A stretch of DNA of 36,388 nt from the NCBI GenBank assembly GCA_021776915.1, contig JAIQZU010000045.1, positions 1-36,388 of the forward strand, written 5' to 3'. The stretch comes from Candidatus Scalindua sp. Its GTDB lineage: Bacteria > Planctomycetota > Brocadiia > Brocadiales > Scalinduaceae. A program made the translations under genes and the position numbers. How positions within the stretch are numbered: position 1 is the stretch's first letter; each line of letters begins with the position of its first letter. The notes under the pieces were generated by a model. That model was not told the DNA's origin. It ran no database searches and saw only the letters and a program-made list of their open reading frames with translations. This document shows, one piece after another, positions 27,481-36,025 of this stretch.

Positions 27481-28409
27481 TTAAAACAATAACCATCTGA
27501 AGCCGATATTAAACGAGTAATCTGTATCAAGTTGATCTCCTCTTGTATCTTCATAAATCGGTTTTTGAAAAGATGCCTCGATTAAGAAATTTCTTGCCGG
27601 TATAAACTGTATACCTGGTGCTAAAAAGATCGTATTTCGTCCGGAATCGTCAACCCGTTTATCGTTCTGTTTATTCTTTTGGTTTAATTGACCGTTAAAT
27701 TCCAGAAACATATTTAAATGTTTTGCCGGATATGTCTCATACACTTCAGGCAATACCCTGTATCCAAAGGCAATATCATAATTCAATGTATCTCCAAACT
27801 CAAAACCATTTGCCTCTGTTTTGAGTGTGTAGATTAAATCAGCATTTATCCCGAAACGCTTTTTGATGTGTGTAAATATAAACCACACCACCGAGGGTAT
27901 AGTCATCTGAACCGGTACCTAACTGCACAGATGCTGGCAGTCTTACACCAGCACTTGTTTTTTCATCGTCTTCTCCGGTAGGAAGCTTGACCTTTCCTAA
28001 TGCAGATATCCTTGTTGTTTGCAAGTGGGCATCTCTCTGCAAGAACTGATACTTTCCAAAAAGCGTCGCCAAATCCAGAGTCTGAGAAACTTTTTCTTTC
28101 ACCATTTATTGTAGTTTTCTTCTCTTTATCCAAGTAAGGCATGGAAGCACCCACCACAAGCTTGTTTGGCAATAGCTCATATGGAACGATAAGTGGAATA
28201 GAGATAATATTTAGTTCGCCCCGTCCTCCCGGGAGAGAACCAATCTGCCTGGTTGCCTTACCAAAGCTCCTTACAGCACCACTCTCAAGTCCTGTTACAA
28301 ATGCAGTCTCGGTATTAATTGGCGGCCCCTGAGCTTCTGCTTGATTGGCAATGTTACTTCCTAAAAGAATAATGACGAAGAAACATAAAGGTATAATATA
28401 TTTTTTCAT
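27481..28409 (-). pseudogene. Outer-membrane beta-barrel (transporter-like), two frameshifts
   Basis: Three overlapping frames form one protein of roughly 305 residues. The first frame gives a signal peptide (MKKYIIPLCFFVIILLG, then AEAQG) and strands up to SFSDSGFGD. The second runs from TLFGKYQFLQRDAHLQTT to GGVVYIYTHQK. The third runs from RFGINADLIYTLKTEANG to the final strand DYSFNIGFRWLLF, with the terminal Phe typical of outer-membrane proteins. It resembles the MetA-pathway/phenol-degradation-type barrel family, often labelled 'transporter'. The shift near 27860-27864 is one extra base in a run of A. The shift near 28060-28068 fits loss of one copy of a 5-base repeat. It ends the metal-responsive minus-strand run. 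Confidence 0.7.
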
Positions 28410-28430
28410 CTTAAAGCTACGTTTGTTGGA

Positions 28431-28477
28431 AGTCTACCCGCCTGACCAGGCAGTTCGGGCAGGAAGACCTCCGCTAC
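28431..28477. repeat. REP-like imperfect palindrome
   Basis: GTCTACCCGCC at about 28433-28443 is imperfectly inverted in GGGCAGGAAGAC at 28457-28468, with an inner CCTGACCAGG palindrome. It lies between the HMA-domain gene and the barrel gene on the minus strand and belongs with the other GC-rich intergenic palindromes of this window. Confidence 0.45.
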
Positions 28478-28504
28478 ATAAAATAAAAATTCTACACTAT
28501 TAAA

Positions 28505-29029
28505 TCATTCGAACTTAAAATCCATTATCTCTAAAGCATAAGGATGTACGCCATGACTTTCTATTTTATCTTCCTGTGCCAGACCAATTATCGTAATAAT
28601 CTTATCCTGAGCCTGTTCAGCAGCTATTATTTCATCAAGCATTTTATTGTTTTTCAAGGTAAAGACATCAGAAACATTATCAACTCTTAAGGTCATCCGG
28701 TCATCAATCTTTTCAATTCTTCCTTTTAAAGTAATGAGAATTTCCCTGAGGGTAAACCCACTATCCTTAACGGCCTTCTTTAATCCATCAATGTCTATTA
28801 ATTTACCTTCTTTAATAGTAATTTCTGCCAATCCGGCATTAACCAATATCTTCAGGTCTTCGACTGCCTCCACTCTTTTTAGTTTTTTCTCCAGATTGTA
28901 CGCACAGAATGTGCATACAAGACCATCCAGCTTGACTTGAACCCTGGCAGGTTCTGCTGATGCTAATCTAATGAATATCATCAGGATAAGAATAATTGAT
29001 AAAAAGATTAAGAAGTTCTTTTTCTTCAT
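28505..29029 (-). CDS. Exported HMA-domain metal-binding protein
   Basis: A 174-residue protein with a cleavable signal or anchor (LIFLSIILILMIFIRLASA), probably periplasmic. Residues 28-98 form a heavy-metal-associated ferredoxin-like fold: VQVKLDGLVCTFCAYNLEKK supplies the Cys39-x2-Cys42 pair in the metal loop (consensus GMxCxxC, here GLVCTFC), and DGLKKAVKDSGFTLREI closes the fold. The second half is a small beta-rich domain of unknown role. AGGAGGT lies 8 bases before the ATG, the strongest ribosome site here. Like MerP it could bind Hg or Cu in the periplasm. It is downstream of merR and the GDCCVxC gene on the same strand. Confidence 0.8.
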   Translation of the reverse strand: MKKKNFLIFLSIILILMIFIRLASAEPARVQVKLDGLVCTFCAYNLEKKLKRVEAVEDLKILVNAGLAEITIKEGKLIDIDGLKKAVKDSGFTLREILITLKGRIEKIDDRMTLRVDNVSDVFTLKNNKMLDEIIAAEQAQDKIITIIGLAQEDKIESHGVHPYALEIMDFKFE

Positions 29030-29089
29030 TTTGGATTACCTCCTTCCCTTTGCTTGCCTCTCTGTATTATTGCGGCTCCAAATCTTAGT

Positions 29090-29299
29090 TTAACAACATT
29101 TCTTGTCAGTCTGTATAGGTGGGCATGGCACAGAACCGTACGAACAAAAAACGCAACAATCTCCTTCTTTGGGGTTCAACATTTCTTTGCAGTTTTCACA
29201 AACATAGAAATGTTGACAGGCATCCGTTGGCATTTTCTCTTCTTTTTGATGCCCACATTTAGGGCATGTAATAATTGATTCTAAGATTAGGTTTAACAT
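29090..29299 (-). CDS. GDCCVxC-type cysteine-rich protein
   Basis: Small protein of 69 residues with eleven cysteines. CPKCG near the start and CENCKEM in the middle form a rubredoxin-like zinc site, and GDCCVFCSYG (Cys48, 49, 52) is the signature of the family known as GDCCVxC domain-containing (seleno)protein. Some members carry selenocysteine in this motif; here all positions are ordinary Cys codons. Such proteins are often found next to mercury genes. AAGGAAG lies 6 bases before the ATG. The C-terminal Cys-Cys pair could take part in metal transfer. It stands between the thioredoxin-like and HMA-domain genes under the likely control of MerR. Confidence 0.82.
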   Translation of the reverse strand: MLNLILESIITCPKCGHQKEEKMPTDACQHFYVCENCKEMLNPKEGDCCVFCSYGSVPCPPIQTDKKCC

Positions 29300-29326
29300 T
29301 GTTTTCTTCCTTTTAAAACAGTTGAA

Positions 29327-29368
29327 TCACCATCTGAAACTGATATTAAACGAGTAATCTAATCTGTA
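29327..29368 (-). pseudogene. Scar of a second outer-membrane barrel gene (3' end)
   Basis: The minus strand reads LDYSFNISFRW and a stop, nearly identical to the final strand of the barrel gene at 27481-28409 (DYSFNIGFRW). At DNA level 32 bases match 27492-27523 with two mismatches. Only the last dozen codons remain, in the 100-base gap between the GDCCVxC and thioredoxin-like genes. A duplicated barrel gene was probably here and was lost by recombination. Confidence 0.6.
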
Positions 29369-29399
29369 ACCAAAAACAATATAATAGTTTTATACCCTA

Positions 29400-29666
29400 T
29401 CAGGAAATAGGTTGCCCTAATCCAGCAGCCATTAGTTCAGACTTAGATACCTTACCCTGACGGCAACAATCAGCAATCTTGCCATCTACTACAACCGTAG
29501 GTACGGATGCAATCCCATATGCGTTTGCCTTGTCCTTCCCTTCGTTATTAAGATTATAAATGATTACCTCACAAAATTCACAAGTGATATCCTTAACCAA
29601 CTTAACAACTTCATCACACAAATAACAACCTGCAATAAATATTTCGATTTTTCTTTTCCTTGACAT
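29400..29666 (-). CDS. Thioredoxin-like small redox protein
   Basis: An 88-residue thioredoxin-fold protein: active-site CxxC in IAGCYLCDEVVKLVK (Cys14, Cys17) and the cis-proline loop ASVPTVVVDG (Pro56). Two further pairs, Cys29/Cys32 and Cys67/Cys68, give it six cysteines in total, unusual for so small a thioredoxin and suggestive of metal or thiol relay. There is no signal peptide, so it acts in the cytosol. GGGAGGTG precedes the ATG by a few bases. It is the first gene after merR on the minus strand; a role in handling Hg(II) or other thiophilic metals is inferred from context. Confidence 0.82.
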   Translation of the reverse strand: MSRKRKIEIFIAGCYLCDEVVKLVKDITCEFCEVIIYNLNNEGKDKANAYGIASVPTVVVDGKIADCCRQGKVSKSELMAAGLGQPIS

Positions 29667-29714
29667 TTTCGCACCTCCCTTTAATTATTAAATTTTTTCA
29701 TAGCACCTATCGAG

Positions 29715-30131
29715 TCATTTATATTTCCTAGTTTTTTTCTGGCTCAAACTTTCAATGATTGGACACTCGGAGATTTTCCTTTTACCAAGACATTTTTCAA
29801 TCAAATCCTTCAAGACCGATTTTATTTTTTGAAGATCATGTATACGGGCTTCAATATCCTTAACCTTATCTTCCGCAAATTTACGGATATCCTTACAAGC
29901 AGGATTTCCATCTGCCACAGCAAGAAGTTCAGAGATTTCCTTTAGTGTAAAACCCAGGGCTTGAGCCCTTTTTATAAAACGTATTCGTTCAATGTATTCA
30001 GGTGGAAATTCTCTATATCCTGAAACCCTTCTGGGTGGTTCTGGAATTAGTCCACGCCGTTCATAATAACGTATGGTTTCAATATTAACCCCAGTTTCTT
30101 TAGCTAATTGTCCTGTTGTTAAATTCTTCAT
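29715..30131 (-). CDS. merR: MerR-family regulator with mercury-type cysteines
   Basis: A 138-residue regulator. The winged-helix part (TTGQLAKETGVNIETIRYYE, then RRVSGYREF) is followed by the dimerisation helix. Three cysteines, Cys79, Cys114 and Cys123, have spacings of 35 and 9, exactly those of the Hg(II)-binding Cys82/117/126 of Tn501 MerR. The open frame extends 37 codons further upstream, but that part crosses the promoter at 30148-30178, so the ATG at 30131 is the start. The leader is only about 10 bases, with no Shine-Dalgarno site. Repression and metal-dependent activation of its own operon are expected. Other soft metals cannot be excluded. Confidence 0.9.
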   Translation of the reverse strand: MKNLTTGQLAKETGVNIETIRYYERRGLIPEPPRRVSGYREFPPEYIERIRFIKRAQALGFTLKEISELLAVADGNPACKDIRKFAEDKVKDIEARIHDLQKIKSVLKDLIEKCLGKRKISECPIIESLSQKKTRKYK

Positions 30132-30147
30132 TTTATTTCTATATATA

Positions 30148-30178
30148 ATTATAACCCAGTACCTCAGTACAGAGTCAA
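30148..30178 (-). promoter_or_regulatory. MerR-type promoter and operator
   Basis: On the minus strand TTGACT (30173-30178) and TATAAT (30148-30153) are separated by 19 bases, the long spacer typical of MerR-activated promoters. The spacer holds the dyad ACTCTGTAC-TGAG-GTACTGGGT, in which seven of nine positions pair, closely matching the known mer operator pattern. It drives merR itself and probably the genes down to 27481. Confidence 0.85.
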
Positions 30179-30352: not shown

Positions 30353-30685
30353 ATGTTAATTACTAAATCGATCATACTATTCATACTTGCCGGATTATGC
30401 GAGATAGGGGGCGGATACCTTGTATGGCTCTGGCTTCGAGAAGGCAAGAGTATATGGATCGGTATATTTGGTGGTGTAATCTTGGTGCTTTATGGAATAA
30501 TCCCGACTCTTCAGCACGCAAACTTTGGCAGAGTATACGCTGCATATGGCGGTGTATTTGTAATCCTGTCTATATTGTGGGGATGGAAGATAGACAAAAT
30601 AAATCCTGATAAATATGACATCATTGGCGGCATAATATGCCTTGTTGGTGTATTTGTCATAATGTACTGGCCGAGGAATGCTTAA
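30353..30685 (+). CDS. YnfA/UPF0060-family membrane protein
   Basis: Small inner-membrane protein of 110 residues with four hydrophobic helices. Family features are clear: [20 protein letters not shown], then [20 protein letters not shown], then a final helix [20 protein letters not shown]0060 is related to the small multidrug-resistance (SMR) fold; its substrate is not established. It is the only plus-strand gene in the metal island, divergent from merR, and is placed between the MerR run and the efflux genes. No Shine-Dalgarno motif is visible before the ATG. Confidence 0.93.
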
Positions 30686-30743: not shown

Positions 30744-31355
30744 TCAACAATTACACAATTTTTCTTCCTTCAAGGTGGAATAGCCTTCTTTTATCAGAAT
30801 AATTACAATTATTAATCCTACAAATGGGTCTGCTTCCCAAAATCCATATAAATAATTTAGCCCTAATCCAATTAACAAAGCAATAGACAAAAAAACACAT
30901 ACAAGTGTTTGCTTAGAGTCTGCTACTAAGCTTCTGCTGTTTATAGATTTTCCGGTTTGATATTTCATATAAAACAAAACTGGCATTACTAATATGGAGA
31001 GGATAGCGATGATTATCCCGAAAAGACTTGGATCAGGGATTTCATGAAAGTGCAATTTCTTGACAGATTCATATAGAACAAAAGCTCCAAGTATAAAGAA
31101 GGTATAAGCAACTAATCTTATCGCTTTTTTCTCAACTTTTTCTTCCTCCTCTTTAGAAATTTTTCCATGTTTTCTAAATCTCCAAATCATTACACTACCC
31201 GATAAAGACTCTACGAAACCATCTAGCCCAAATCCAACTAAGGCTATACTACCAGCTAATAATCCGGCAAATATTGATACTATTCCCTCTAAGATATTGT
31301 ATCCTACTGTAAAATATGATAATAAAAGTGCTTTTTTATGAAGTTTTGAATCCAT
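30744..31355 (-). CDS. Short CDF-like cation efflux protein
   Basis: Inner-membrane protein of 203 residues with about six hydrophobic helices, in the cation diffusion facilitator superfamily. TM2 shows ALVGFGLDGFVESLSGSVMI with Asp45 and Glu49 at the positions of the usual (H/D)xxxD metal site. TM5 shows SLVADSKQTLVCVFLS with Asp146. The cytoplasmic C-terminal domain of standard CDF proteins is absent, and the chain ends in CNC, so this belongs to a shortened subgroup. A charged Glu/Lys loop (KISKEEEEKVEKK) follows TM2. Metal specificity is open: Zn, Cd, Co or Hg. It is 67 bases downstream of the RND pump on the same strand and likely in its operon. Confidence 0.75.
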   Translation of the reverse strand: MDSKLHKKALLLSYFTVGYNILEGIVSIFAGLLAGSIALVGFGLDGFVESLSGSVMIWRFRKHGKISKEEEEKVEKKAIRLVAYTFFILGAFVLYESVKKLHFHEIPDPSLFGIIIAILSILVMPVLFYMKYQTGKSINSRSLVADSKQTLVCVFLSIALLIGLGLNYLYGFWEADPFVGLIIVIILIKEGYSTLKEEKLCNC

Positions 31356-31422: not shown

Positions 31423-34400
31423 TTATGCAGAGCTATGTATCTTAATTCTATTCCTTAAATACTTCCCCATGGTGAGATACAATGCTGGAAGTACAAATAA
31501 GGTTAGCAAAGTAGAAGTAGTTACACCACCAATTACCACTGTAGCAAGTGGTCGCTGAACTTCGGCTCCAACACCGGTTGAAATAGCCATTGGCATAAAA
31601 CCTGCCGCATCAGTGATAGCAGTTGCCATTACAGGAAGTAAACGTTGTTTGGCTGCGACCTTAACAGCTTCACCTAAAATAAGCCCTTCTTTCCTACACA
31701 TTCTGATAGAGGATACCAGAATCTGACCATTAAGGACGGCAATACCACTGAGGGCTATAAAACCAATTGCTGCGCTTACACTGAAAGGCATACCTCGACC
31801 CCATAGAGCAAAAACACCTCCTATAAATGCAAATGGAACACCTGTATAAATAATGAGAACATCAACAAGGTTTTTCAGGCAGAAGTACAACATAAGAAAT
31901 ATTAGCGAAAGTGCTATGGGTACAACAATCATAAATCGTATTCTGGAACGTTGCAGATGTTCAAACTGACCTCCCCACTCGGTTACATATCCATCAGGTA
32001 AACTCATTTCGTTCTCAATGCGAGTTCGTGCTTCTTGCACAAAAGAGGCTATATCCCTGTCTCTGACATTGCATTGTATCTTTATTAAACGACGTCCCCA
32101 TTCCCGATTTATAGTTGAATAACCTTCCGATTCTCTGACTTCAGCTAAATTACGAAGCGGCAAAATTTGCCCTGATTCAGTGGGGATGAGTGTGTTAGCC
32201 AGGGCATCGACATCTGTGCGTTGTTTTTCGGGCAACCTGACTACAAGCGGAAATCTCCTCTGTCCTTCAAAGATGTCACCTACCTGATGAATTCCAACCG
32301 TTTTAACGAGATTAAGCACGTTGCTTGCCGGAATACCGTATCTTGCAATCTGATCCTGGCTTACAACTACTTGAAGGGTAGGTTGTCCTGTAATCTGCTC
32401 TCCAGCAATATCTGAAACGCCTTTGACGCTCTTGAGAATTTCCTGCACCCTATTGCTGAGACGAACCAGTTCTTCAAAGTTGTCCCCATAAATCTTAATA
32501 CCCACGTCTGATCTGATGCCGGTAACCATCTCATTCAAGCGCATTTCAATGGGTTGGGTAAAGATCATATTTACACCAGGCAAGTCTTCAAGTTCTTCTT
32601 CCATTTGCTTGATTAGTTCAGCCTGAGTTCTCGCACGTTTCCATTGGTCTCCGGGATTAAGCGTGATAAAAATGTCTGTCAGTTCTATACCCATTGGGTC
32701 TGTTGCAACTTCGGCTGTTCCAATCCGACTCCAGATATTTTTAATTTCATCTGGAAAGAGTCCAAGCAGGAGTTTTTCAATGCGTGAATTGTAGGCAACG
32801 GCCTCCTCTATAGATACTCCGGCAAGGCGTATAATGTTAATGACGATAGAGCCTTCTTTAAGTATTGGTATAAATTCCCCTCCCAACCTGGTTCCGATAA
32901 CGGTAGTCCCTATTAGTAAAATAAACACAGTACCGAATAGTACATATTTCCATCGGAGTATCATTGTAAGCGAAGTTGTGTATCCTCTTTTTAAGATGCG
33001 TTCAATAAAACCTTCTTTTTCTCTTATTTTTCTAGGTAAAAAATAATAAGACAATATGGGTGAGAGTAATATGGCAATGGCCAGCGCACCAATCATTGCA
33101 AAGATAAATGTCCATGCCATTGGCCTGAACATCTTTCCTTCAATATCTTCCAGTGTCAGGATAGGGAGAAAGACAATTATGATAATACCCATGCCGAAAA
33201 TAATGGGACGGATAACCTCTTTACCGGATTCAGATATGCTTTGCAGACGTTCCATATTTGTCAATGGCCTTCCCAAATGCCGTTGCCTCTCGTTTAATTT
33301 TCGCATATTTATTTCTGTCATTACCACAGAACCGTCAACAATAATACCAAAGTCAATAGCCCCCATGCTCAATAGACTGGCTGCTATAGAAAATTCATAC
33401 ATACCGAAAATAGCAAAAAGCATTGAAATTGGAATTGCGATTGCTACAAGTAGACCAGCTCGAAAGTTGCCCAATATCAGGAATAATACTAAAACTACAA
33501 GTGTTGCCCCGTAAACCAAATTATGCTTTACTGTATTTATTACTTTATATATAAGATTAGTGCGGTCGTAAACAATCCCCACCTTTACATCTTCTGGCAG
33601 GGACTTGCGAACAATATCAAGACTCTTTTTTAATCTTTCAGTTACCTTTTTGCTATTTTCACCCATTAAGGCGAAACCAAGTCCCAGGACCACCTCTCCT
33701 TGCCCCCCGGCAGTTACTGCTCCCCGGCGGATTTCGTGTCCTATTGCCACTTCTGCAACATTCTTGATATAAACCGGAGCGCCTTTGTGGGCCTTCAGCA
33801 CTATGTTTTCTATCTGTTCAATTGAGCTAACCCGGCCCAGTCCATGTACAAGCAGAGATTGCCCTGCTGATACGACTCGTCCTCCACCCACGTTATGATT
33901 ATTTTGAGTAAGCGTTTCAAATACCTTGTTTAGAGTTAGTTTGTATTTTACCAGAGACTCAGGCGAGACTATAACCTGGTATTGCCGTTCAAAACCGCCC
34001 CACGAATTAACTTCAGCCACCCCAGGCACCTTTCTTAGTTCGGGTTTTATAACCCAATCGTGAAGAGTCCGAAGTTCATCCAGTGTGCGTTCGGGATTTG
34101 AAGATCGTATAATATAATGGAAAACCTCTCCAAGACCGGTGGAGATAGGGCCCAATTGCGGACGATCTATACCTTCAGGCAGATCAACGCTTATAAGCCG
34201 TTCCAGAATGAATTGACGAGCATCGTAAATGTTAGTGTTGTCATCAAATGTTGCAACAACTTGAGATAAGCCAAACTTTGATATAGAGCGCACGTTAATA
34301 AGACCTGAAAAACCGGATATGGATAGTTCAATTGGCAGTGTTATTTGTTGTTCAATTTCCGAGGGATTAAGATTAGACGCAACGGTATTGATCTGAACCT

Positions 34401-34533
34401 GTACAGGGGTAGTATCTGGAAATGCGTCTATGGGCGTATGCATTATAGAACGAACACCAATACCAATGAACACTGCAAAGAGTAACAGGATAACCATCCT
34501 GTTTTTTAGAGAGAATTCTATAATTTTATTCAT
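31423..34533 (-). CDS. czcA: CzcA-type heavy-metal RND efflux pump
   Basis: Inner-membrane proton-driven exporter of 1036 residues, the core of a tripartite system. The start NKIIEFSLKNRMVILLLFAV is typical of the heavy-metal (HME) branch. TM4 has IDFGIIVDGSVVMTE, giving Asp, Asp and Glu with spacings 6 and 7, as for CzcA Asp402/Asp408/Glu415; this favours divalent cations over Cu(I)/Ag(I). Two large periplasmic loops and twelve membrane segments are complete. ATG 34533 is used rather than GTG 34539 because the GGAGGG ribosome site is better spaced. Its start overlaps the adaptor's stop by 8 bases, so the two are translationally coupled. Confidence 0.95.
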   Translation of the reverse strand: MNKIIEFSLKNRMVILLLFAVFIGIGVRSIMHTPIDAFPDTTPVQVQINTVASNLNPSEIEQQITLPIELSISGFSGLINVRSISKFGLSQVVATFDDNTNIYDARQFILERLISVDLPEGIDRPQLGPISTGLGEVFHYIIRSSNPERTLDELRTLHDWVIKPELRKVPGVAEVNSWGGFERQYQVIVSPESLVKYKLTLNKVFETLTQNNHNVGGGRVVSAGQSLLVHGLGRVSSIEQIENIVLKAHKGAPVYIKNVAEVAIGHEIRRGAVTAGGQGEVVLGLGFALMGENSKKVTERLKKSLDIVRKSLPEDVKVGIVYDRTNLIYKVINTVKHNLVYGATLVVLVLFLILGNFRAGLLVAIAIPISMLFAIFGMYEFSIAASLLSMGAIDFGIIVDGSVVMTEINMRKLNERQRHLGRPLTNMERLQSISESGKEVIRPIIFGMGIIIIVFLPILTLEDIEGKMFRPMAWTFIFAMIGALAIAILLSPILSYYFLPRKIREKEGFIERILKRGYTTSLTMILRWKYVLFGTVFILLIGTTVIGTRLGGEFIPILKEGSIVINIIRLAGVSIEEAVAYNSRIEKLLLGLFPDEIKNIWSRIGTAEVATDPMGIELTDIFITLNPGDQWKRARTQAELIKQMEEELEDLPGVNMIFTQPIEMRLNEMVTGIRSDVGIKIYGDNFEELVRLSNRVQEILKSVKGVSDIAGEQITGQPTLQVVVSQDQIARYGIPASNVLNLVKTVGIHQVGDIFEGQRRFPLVVRLPEKQRTDVDALANTLIPTESGQILPLRNLAEVRESEGYSTINREWGRRLIKIQCNVRDRDIASFVQEARTRIENEMSLPDGYVTEWGGQFEHLQRSRIRFMIVVPIALSLIFLMLYFCLKNLVDVLIIYTGVPFAFIGGVFALWGRGMPFSVSAAIGFIALSGIAVLNGQILVSSIRMCRKEGLILGEAVKVAAKQRLLPVMATAITDAAGFMPMAISTGVGAEVQRPLATVVIGGVTTSTLLTLFVLPALYLTMGKYLRNRIKIHSSA

Positions 34534-36025
34534 CCACACAACCCTCCCCCAGACGAGATTTGAGGAATTCTGATTTTAATGTAAAGCTCCCTGCGACAAC
34601 TATCTTTTCACGAAGCGATATTCCTTCAAGAATCTCAATCTTATCATCGTTTCTACTACCCGGTACAACCCTGCGAATTTCGTAAAGATCGTCCGATAGC
34701 TTAACAAACAGGAAAGACTTTTTATTGAATCGCTGTATGGACTCAACAGGAACGTACAACCCTTTGTTAGATTGCTCAGACAAGAGTGAGCTTTTCCCAA
34801 ACATTCCGTGTTTTAACAGAAAATCCGGGTTTTTTACAATTGCACGACCCTTTAACATCCGGCTTTCTTCTTCTAAGCTAGAGGCCAGCCAGATTAAATC
34901 CCCATGCAGATTTTTCCCGGGAAGGCTATCAAAACTTGCTTCGACTGTATTACCGACCTTGAAAAAAGACAACATGTATTCCGGGATAGAAAGCTCAAGC
35001 CACATTGTAGATAAATCTGCCAGAGAAAAAAGGGTATCGCCACGTTTTACGGCCTCTCCTACAACAGCATTCCTCTCAATAATCGTTCCTGCAAATGGGG
35101 CGCGAATAGGAAAAACAGAAGTGCTTGATCGAGTTTCAACAATTCCTTTAACTTCGGCTTCTGTAAATCCGTAATTTAGAAGTTGCTGGCGTCTTGTATT
35201 AGTGGTGTTTGTAGCCACCTGGTATTCTGCCAGCGCTTGCTGATACTCACGTTGTGAAGATATCTTTTTTTCAAAAAGCCCTTTTTCCCGTTTATAAACC
35301 AGCTCCTTTAGTGTTTGATTTGCGATAGCAGTTAAATAATCTGCCTTTGCACTTGCGATCTCGGGTGAGACTATCTCGACCAAAACATCATCTTTAGACA
35401 CATATGCACCCACATCTACAAGGACACTTCGAATGACTCCTGAAGTTAAAGGTGTTATACGGGCAAGATAATTCATGTTGTAGGTGATCTGACATAGAAC
35501 ACTATGGGTGGCAGAAGGTTTATCTTCATTTGGGACGGTTGTAACCACACCTGCCTTTACGGCAGATTCAGGAGATTCCAAGCGGACCTTTAATCCCTGT
35601 CCAATATTAAGCGAGTTGCTCAACTCTGGGTGGCATATCCCACATTCTCGCTCAGGCACCCTGTGTTCTTCACAATAAAGTTCTACTGATGGTACTTCTC
35701 TGTTATTTGGTTTTAACTCAGGATGGCAAATAAAACATTCGTCTTCATAAACGCCATGTTCCTTACACCACAAACGATTTAAATTTTGACTAAGCACTTC
35801 TGATTTCATGACCGACTCAGGGTTGCAAATAGAACATTCATCCTCATAAACATTATGTTCATTGCACCATAATCGATTTGAGCTTCGGACAACATTTTCC
35901 ATTTGCTTATTATGAACTTCATTTGCGTAACAGTTCATATATTTAATCTGGATTAAAAGCAATGCCACAAAAATAATCCCTGACAAACAAAATACCCGGT
36001 TTTTCATACGTTGTTTATTTTTCAT
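34526..36025 (-). CDS. RND periplasmic adaptor with three Cys/His metal-binding repeats
   Basis: Membrane-fusion protein of 499 residues, linking the RND pump to the outer-membrane channel. After an N-terminal membrane segment (residues 10-30) come three copies of C-x2-H-x6-C-x2-C: Cys54-Cys67 (LWCNEHNVYEDECSICNPE), Cys87-Cys100 and Cys118-Cys131. From about 170 on it is a standard HlyD/CzcB adaptor: barrel-sandwich domain (VLVDVGAYVSKDDVLVEI), long helical hairpin and beta-barrel (IRAPFAGTIIERNAVVGEAV). Single copies of the Cys/His motif are common in related adaptors, so three are noteworthy. They could capture metal in the periplasm. It is coupled to czcA. No clear ribosome site; an alternative start is the ATG at 36007. 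Confidence 0.9.
   Translation of the reverse strand: MKNKQRMKNRVFCLSGIIFVALLLIQIKYMNCYANEVHNKQMENVVRSSNRLWCNEHNVYEDECSICNPESVMKSEVLSQNLNRLWCKEHGVYEDECFICHPELKPNNREVPSVELYCEEHRVPERECGICHPELSNSLNIGQGLKVRLESPESAVKAGVVTTVPNEDKPSATHSVLCQITYNMNYLARITPLTSGVIRSVLVDVGAYVSKDDVLVEIVSPEIASAKADYLTAIANQTLKELVYKREKGLFEKKISSQREYQQALAEYQVATNTTNTRRQQLLNYGFTEAEVKGIVETRSSTSVFPIRAPFAGTIIERNAVVGEAVKRGDTLFSLADLSTMWLELSIPEYMLSFFKVGNTVEASFDSLPGKNLHGDLIWLASSLEEESRMLKGRAIVKNPDFLLKHGMFGKSSLLSEQSNKGLYVPVESIQRFNKKSFLFVKLSDDLYEIRRVVPGSRNDDKIEILEGISLREKIVVAGSFTLKSEFLKSRLGEGCVDE

What the first reader, a model, noticed from the sequence alone, without database searches (positions are those of the whole stretch)
27481..30178. 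MerR-controlled thiol-protein operon without mercuric reductase
The regulator has the exact mercury-binding cysteine spacing (35 and 9) and the promoter has the 19-base spacer and mer-like dyad. Yet downstream are a six-cysteine thioredoxin-like protein, an eleven-cysteine GDCCVxC protein, an exported HMA protein and an outer-membrane barrel, with no merA, merT or merP. This points to a different way of handling Hg(II) or another soft metal: thiol relay and export in place of reduction.
Basis: partly seen in the sequence, partly recalled or inferred. Interest (0 to 1): 0.65.

Follow-up and report, generated by a model that had tools for sequence, protein, structure and literature searches.

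The report
Reduced mercury operon of anammox bacteria
A mercury-sensing switch in an anammox (Scalindua-type) bacterium controls a shrunken mercury-resistance operon: it has lost its mercury importer, its outer-membrane gene is broken, and close relatives carry the same operon with the importer and more distant ones even with the mercury-reducing enzyme.

Summary
The genes are a Hg-type MerR (Cys79/114/123), a mer-like promoter (TTGACT-19-TATAAT with a GTAC-N4-GTAC dyad), a six-Cys thioredoxin-like protein, an 11-Cys GDCCVxC protein and an exported HMA protein. There is no merA, merT or merP in the window or elsewhere in the assembly. Two things were missed. First, the outer-membrane barrel is a pseudogene: a 5-bp deletion and a 7-bp insertion split it over three frames, while the relatives have one intact ORF. 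Second, relatives with the same operon carry a MerT-family MerTP fusion, between trx and GDCCVxC where both flank it. The window has a scar there instead, holding 36 bp copied from the barrel's 3' end. The absence of merT/merP is therefore a lineage-specific loss, not a design. Two other Brocadiales genomes carry the same accessory genes beside genuine MerA; in one the MerR is 82% identical. MerA-less merR-merT-merP-GDCCVxC operons are already known (Tn5563), and none of 80 GDCCVxC loci has MerA within 4 kb. Best reading: a reduced, partly decayed mer operon. Still open: a widespread, apparently undescribed MerT-associated envelope module (trx, barrel, HMA), sometimes kept without MerT or MerA.

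The parts
30148..30178 (-). mer-type promoter/operator TTGACT-CTGTACTGAGGTACTGGGT-TATAAT (19-bp spacer, GTAC-N4-GTAC dyad), upstream of merR and reading into the whole operon
29715..30131 (-). MerR, Hg(II)-type regulator (138 aa, Cys79/Cys114/Cys123, CPII motif)
29400..29666 (-). six-cysteine thioredoxin-like protein (CxxC, CxxC, CC), 88 aa
29325..29360 (-). scar: 36-bp copy (92%) of the 3' end of the barrel gene (27488-27523), at the place where relatives carry merTP
   Evidence: merTP in relatives:
29090..29299 (-). GDCCVxC protein, 69 aa, 11 Cys
28505..29029 (-). exported two-domain protein: signal-like N-terminus, HMA domain with CTFCAYNLE, C-terminal domain; 174 aa
27481..28409 (-). Phenol_MetA_deg-like outer-membrane barrel gene, broken: 5-bp deletion near 28066 and 7-bp insertion at 27885-27891 (intact 308-314 aa in relatives)
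30353..30685 (+). YnfA family small membrane protein, divergent from merR; adjacency kept in L036, L038 and an Acidovorax plasmid
30744..31355 (-). cation diffusion facilitator family protein (neighbour, not under the mer promoter)
31423..34539 (-). CusA/CzcA family heavy-metal RND pump (neighbour)
   Evidence: conserved beside the operon in L038
34526..36025 (-). CzcB/CusB-like periplasmic adaptor (neighbour)

Best explanation
This is a reduced, partly decayed member of a Brocadiales mer-type operon family (full set: MerR, Trx-like, MerT or MerTP, GDCCVxC, exported HMA, outer-membrane barrel, and in some lineages MerA). Likely working of the intact form: Hg(II) binds the three MerR cysteines and MerR remodels the 19-bp-spacer promoter to switch the operon on. 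The barrel and the exported HMA protein handle Hg(II)-thiolates in the envelope, MerT(P) carries Hg(II) inward, and the cytosolic Cys-rich Trx-like and GDCCVxC proteins take it over (and pass it to MerA where MerA is present). In this genome MerTP was deleted and the barrel frameshifted. What is left is an Hg-inducible set of a periplasmic HMA binder and two cytosolic thiol proteins, which can at most bind or buffer the metal. Shown: gene content, regulator and operator signatures, scar, frameshifts, and the composition of related operons. Inferred: inducer, metal, direction of flow, and whether the remnant still works.
For: MerR equivalog score and Cys ligands; conserved mer operator. MerTP present in L036, L038 and L054, between trx and GDCCVxC where trx is present; PF02411 found in G001, G002, G006, G013 and G014 but not in G000. 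Scar with a 36-bp barrel copy, E 2e-9. Barrel indels against four intact relatives. Two MerA-bearing relatives: G060 with MerR (82% identical to the window's)-MerT-MerA on one contig and MerA end-CopZ_Nterm-HMA-barrel on another, sharing an exact 99-bp overlap; and G023 with MerR-trx-barrel-HMA-DF protein-MerTP-MerP-MerA at 559 bits.
Against: merR, the Trx-like, GDCCVxC and HMA genes are intact. Pairwise dN/dS is 0.03-0.4, with no acceleration on the window branch for merR or HMA (derived), so the remnant may still be useful rather than dying. No reads were available, so an assembly error at the scar cannot be fully excluded; but the shared repeat is only 36 bp at 92% and no merTP is left anywhere in the assembly.
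Confidence: 0.8

Rival explanations
1. A working non-reductive system: MerR induces a thiol/HMA set that binds Hg(II) in periplasm and cytosol, and export goes through the neighbouring RND and CDF pumps. MerT and MerA are not needed.
For: Remaining genes are intact and constrained. MerR-barrel-HMA without MerT, MerA or GDCCVxC also occurs in G033 (intact) and, with trx and a broken HMA, in G025. MerA over cut-off is absent from 33 of 34 genomes searched, most of them GDCCVxC-bearing. RND genes are kept beside the operon in L038.
Against: The barrel is broken here. The pumps are not behind the mer promoter. The G033 and G025 regulators lack the middle Hg cysteine and have a different operator. 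Tn5563a without MerA lowered Hg MIC in six strains and raised it in two (PMC4447125).
Confidence: 0.17
2. The locus handles another soft metal, such as Cu(I) or Au(I), rather than Hg(II).
For: Related cassettes sit in copper islands (Runella plasmid) or behind a RicR/CsoR-like repressor (L054) or MerRs with an operator that resembles copA (the copA operator is recalled, not tested here).
Against: The window MerR passes the Hg equivalog cut-off and fails CueR and CadR; it has all three Hg ligands and the mer operator. The two closest solved relatives are MerR-type regulators, one of them a mercuric resistance operon regulator.
Confidence: 0.1
3. The scar and frameshifts are assembly errors and the real operon is intact, as in S. 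arabica.
For: The genome is a draft in 89 contigs; no reads were available.
Against: The indels are 5 and 7 bp rather than homopolymer slips; the repeat in the scar is short and diverged; no merTP lies on any other contig.
Confidence: 0.07

Closest known systems
Scalinduaceae merR-trx-merTP-GDCCVxC-HMA-barrel operon (Ca. Scalindua arabica L038; Hainich MAG L036 without trx)
   Same: Same regulator (90-91%), operator, gene order and flanking ynfA; L038 also has the RND genes
   Different: They have MerTP and an intact barrel; the window has a scar and a broken barrel
Tn5563 / pRA2 merR-merT-merP-GDCCVxC (a merA-less mer module, called defective in PMC4785139)
   Same: Hg-type MerR, mer operator, GDCCVxC gene, no merA
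   Different: Has merT and merP and lies in a Tn3-family transposon; no trx, two-domain HMA or barrel; merR is divergent
Classical merRTPA operon (Tn501/Tn21)
   Same: MerR with three Hg cysteines and a 19-bp-spacer promoter with dyad
   Different: No merT, merP or merA here; merR is the first gene of the operon rather than divergent
Brocadiales mer operons with MerA (G060, G023)
   Same: Barrel and two-domain HMA; G060 MerR 82% identical to the window's; G023 also has trx and MerTP
   Different: They carry MerT or MerTP, MerA and other metallochaperones; G023 MerR has other ligands and another operator

Membership tests
Hg(II)-type MerR | Equivalog score and Cys82/117/126-equivalent ligands | tested here: met
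   161.5 bits against 150.85; Cys79/114/123 align
Hg(II)-type MerR | mer promoter with 19-bp spacer and dyad | tested here: met
Hg(II)-type MerR | Response to Hg(II) | not testable with these tools
   needs a transcript or reporter test
merTPA mercury-resistance operon | Mercuric reductase MerA | tested here: not met
   no hit over cut-off in the genome; the best two (320 and 313 bits) have lipoamide-dehydrogenase-type active sites and ends, no C-terminal CC
merTPA mercury-resistance operon | MerT transporter | tested here: not met
   PF02411 absent from G000, found in five relatives in the same search; MerTP query finds only HMA proteins
merTPA mercury-resistance operon | MerP | tested here: not met
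   HMA protein scores 24.7 bits against a MerP cut-off of 92.55
GDCCVxC (seleno)protein family | NF041374 domain score | tested here: met
   109.2 bits against 40; invariant Cys columns
Tn5563-type merA-less mer module | merT and merP beside GDCCVxC | tested here: not met
   lost in the window; MerTP present in relatives
SAO selenoprotein system (SaoT) | NF040730 thioredoxin-like score | tested here: not met
   22.5 bits against 65

The most novel reading that the evidence does not exclude
A recurrent envelope module (six-Cys thioredoxin-like protein, exported two-domain HMA protein and outer-membrane barrel), normally coupled to MerT/MerTP and found in Brocadiales and Bacteroidota, can work without MerA, and in some anammox lineages without MerT: an inducible, non-reductive route for Hg(II) or another soft metal.
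Probability: 0.2. Interest if true: 0.65.

Novelty: new variant of a known kind. Interest (0 to 1): 0.38.

Why it matters
It shows that an apparently new 'mer without merT, merP or merA' operon is the reduced end of a graded series. It also links an outer-membrane barrel, a two-domain exported HMA protein and a six-Cys thioredoxin to mer operons that do contain MerT and MerA. No paper in the held library uses the name GDCCVxC, and none holds both 'Scalindua' and 'mercury resistance'. How MerA-less GDCCVxC operons deal with Hg(II) is therefore an open and testable question.

Tried and rejected
GDCCVxC fold: the AlphaFold model was poor (mean pLDDT 53.7) and Foldseek gave nothing below E 1.5; profile hits in the PDB are only weak zinc-ribbon/rubredoxin-like matches; no fold is claimed. 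MerA elsewhere in the genome: the two best hits are lipoamide-dehydrogenase-like. A second mer operator in the genome: none. Membership in the SAO selenoprotein system: rejected on score. Literature searches for merA-less mer operons by phrase gave almost nothing; the useful papers came through Tn5563.

Full report
WHAT IS THERE. The window is a contig (C40) of a 3.79-Mb, 89-contig genome, 95% complete. Its closest GDCCVxC relatives include a Ca. Brocadiaceae groundwater MAG (96%) and Scalindua MAGs, so the organism is Scalindua-like (inference). On the minus strand lie merR 29715-30131, a six-Cys thioredoxin-like gene 29400-29666, a GDCCVxC gene 29090-29299, an exported HMA gene 28505-29029 and the remains of an outer-membrane barrel gene 27481-28409. 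Divergent from merR is ynfA; beyond it lie a CDF transporter and a CzcA/CzcB-type RND pump.

REGULATOR AND OPERATOR. MerR passes NCBI's Hg-type equivalog cut-off and fails those of CueR, CadR-PbrR and ZntR. Its cysteines 79, 114 and 123 align with those of Tn5563 and other plasmid MerRs; in Tn501 MerR the three conserved ligands are Cys82, 117 and 126 (PMC5027573). The promoter has a 19-bp spacer and a GTAC-N4-GTAC dyad, closely matching the mer promoters of the Acidovorax, Xanthomonas and Rhodanobacter plasmids. It is unique in the genome at up to three mismatches.

WHAT IS MISSING IS A LOSS. Ca. Scalindua arabica (L038) has merR-trx-merTP-GDCCVxC-HMA-barrel. L036 has the same without trx, and S. 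sediminis (L054) has trx-merTP-GDCCVxC-HMA-barrel behind a CsoR-like gene. The MerTP protein has a MerT domain over the Pfam cut-off and a C-terminal HMA domain, although it stays below NCBI's MerTP equivalog cut-off (134 against 180 bits). In the window, trx ends at 29400 and GDCCVxC starts at 29299. The gap holds a 36-bp copy (92%, E 2e-9) of the barrel gene's 3' end, followed by the usual GDCCVxC leader. One search with the MerT profile found MerT in G001, G002, G006, G013 and G014 but not in G000. The barrel gene carries a 5-bp deletion and a 7-bp insertion against four intact relatives.

THE SAME GENES BESIDE MERA. G060 (Brocadiales, family f5) has merR (82% identical to the window's), merT and most of merA on one contig; another contig carries the end of merA (with the C-terminal CC), a CopZ_Nterm protein, the two-domain HMA, the barrel and a P-type ATPase. 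The two contigs share an exact 99-bp overlap inside merA, so joining them is an inference. G023 (another Brocadiales family) has a MerR-family gene, trx, barrel, HMA, a DF-family protein, MerTP, MerP-like and MerA, the last at 559 bits against a cut-off of 454. Some Bacteroidota loci carry trx, barrel, HMA and MerT genes in one cluster, e.g. L092 and L104. The accessory genes therefore belong to mer-type operons as a kind.

HOW COMMON IS IT WITHOUT MERA. Of 80 GDCCVxC loci, 68 have MerTP or a MerTP-like gene within 4 kb; none has a genuine MerA there (15 have a 27-31% identical FAD oxidoreductase without the C-terminal CC). Of 34 genomes searched, most of them GDCCVxC-bearing, one has MerA above cut-off. 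Plasmid merR-merT-merP-GDCCVxC modules without merA occur in Tn5563, Acidovorax, Rhodanobacter and Xanthomonas. In the published test Tn5563a raised the Hg MIC in two strains and lowered it in six (PMC4447125).

IS THE REMNANT STILL USED? Pairwise dN/dS for merR, trx, GDCCVxC and HMA is 0.03-0.4. Three-way differences give the window branch about 0.15 for merR and 0.26 for HMA, within the range of the relatives with the full operon. Most of that signal may predate the loss, so it does not show present use. G033 keeps an intact MerR-barrel-HMA set and G025 a MerR-trx-barrel-broken-HMA set, both without MerT or MerA nearby, so reduction of this operon has happened more than once, or the small set has a use of its own.

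VERDICT. It is a reduced, partly decayed mer operon. The open question with real interest is what the MerT-associated trx/barrel/HMA module and GDCCVxC do in the many MerA-less operons.

Noticed in passing
L054 4690-5049 (Ca. Scalindua sediminis): The same trx-merTP-GDCCVxC-HMA-barrel cassette sits behind a CsoR/RicR-like repressor instead of MerR; the usual His ligand position seems to read Asn.
   Followed up: partly
L145 3995-4435, L146 4440-4877, L147 4300-4752: MerRs of another Brocadiales family lack the middle Hg cysteine and have a CTTCCA-type dyad that resembles the E. coli copA operator (from memory), yet one of them heads an operon with genuine MerA.
   Followed up: partly
L092 4645-5991 and 14 further Bacteroidota loci: A glutathione-reductase/lipoamide-dehydrogenase-like FAD protein (GGTCALRGCDPKK, no C-terminal CC) lies between merTP and GDCCVxC.
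   Followed up: partly
L015-L018, L021, L022, L024 (other Brocadiales): Stand-alone GDCCVxC relatives with GHCCVFC (SHCCVFC in L022) in place of GDCCVFC, beside TlpA-like, cytochrome or methyltransferase genes.
   Followed up: no
L148 5328-9005 (G014): A composite operon: merR-trx-barrel-HMA-MerT followed by a truncated MerTP, GDCCVxC and a second HMA, as if two versions had been joined.
   Followed up: partly
window 29090-29299 against L036 and L038: GDCCVxC is 96% identical to L036 but only 72% to L038, while merR is 90-91% to both: the operon looks mosaic.
   Followed up: no
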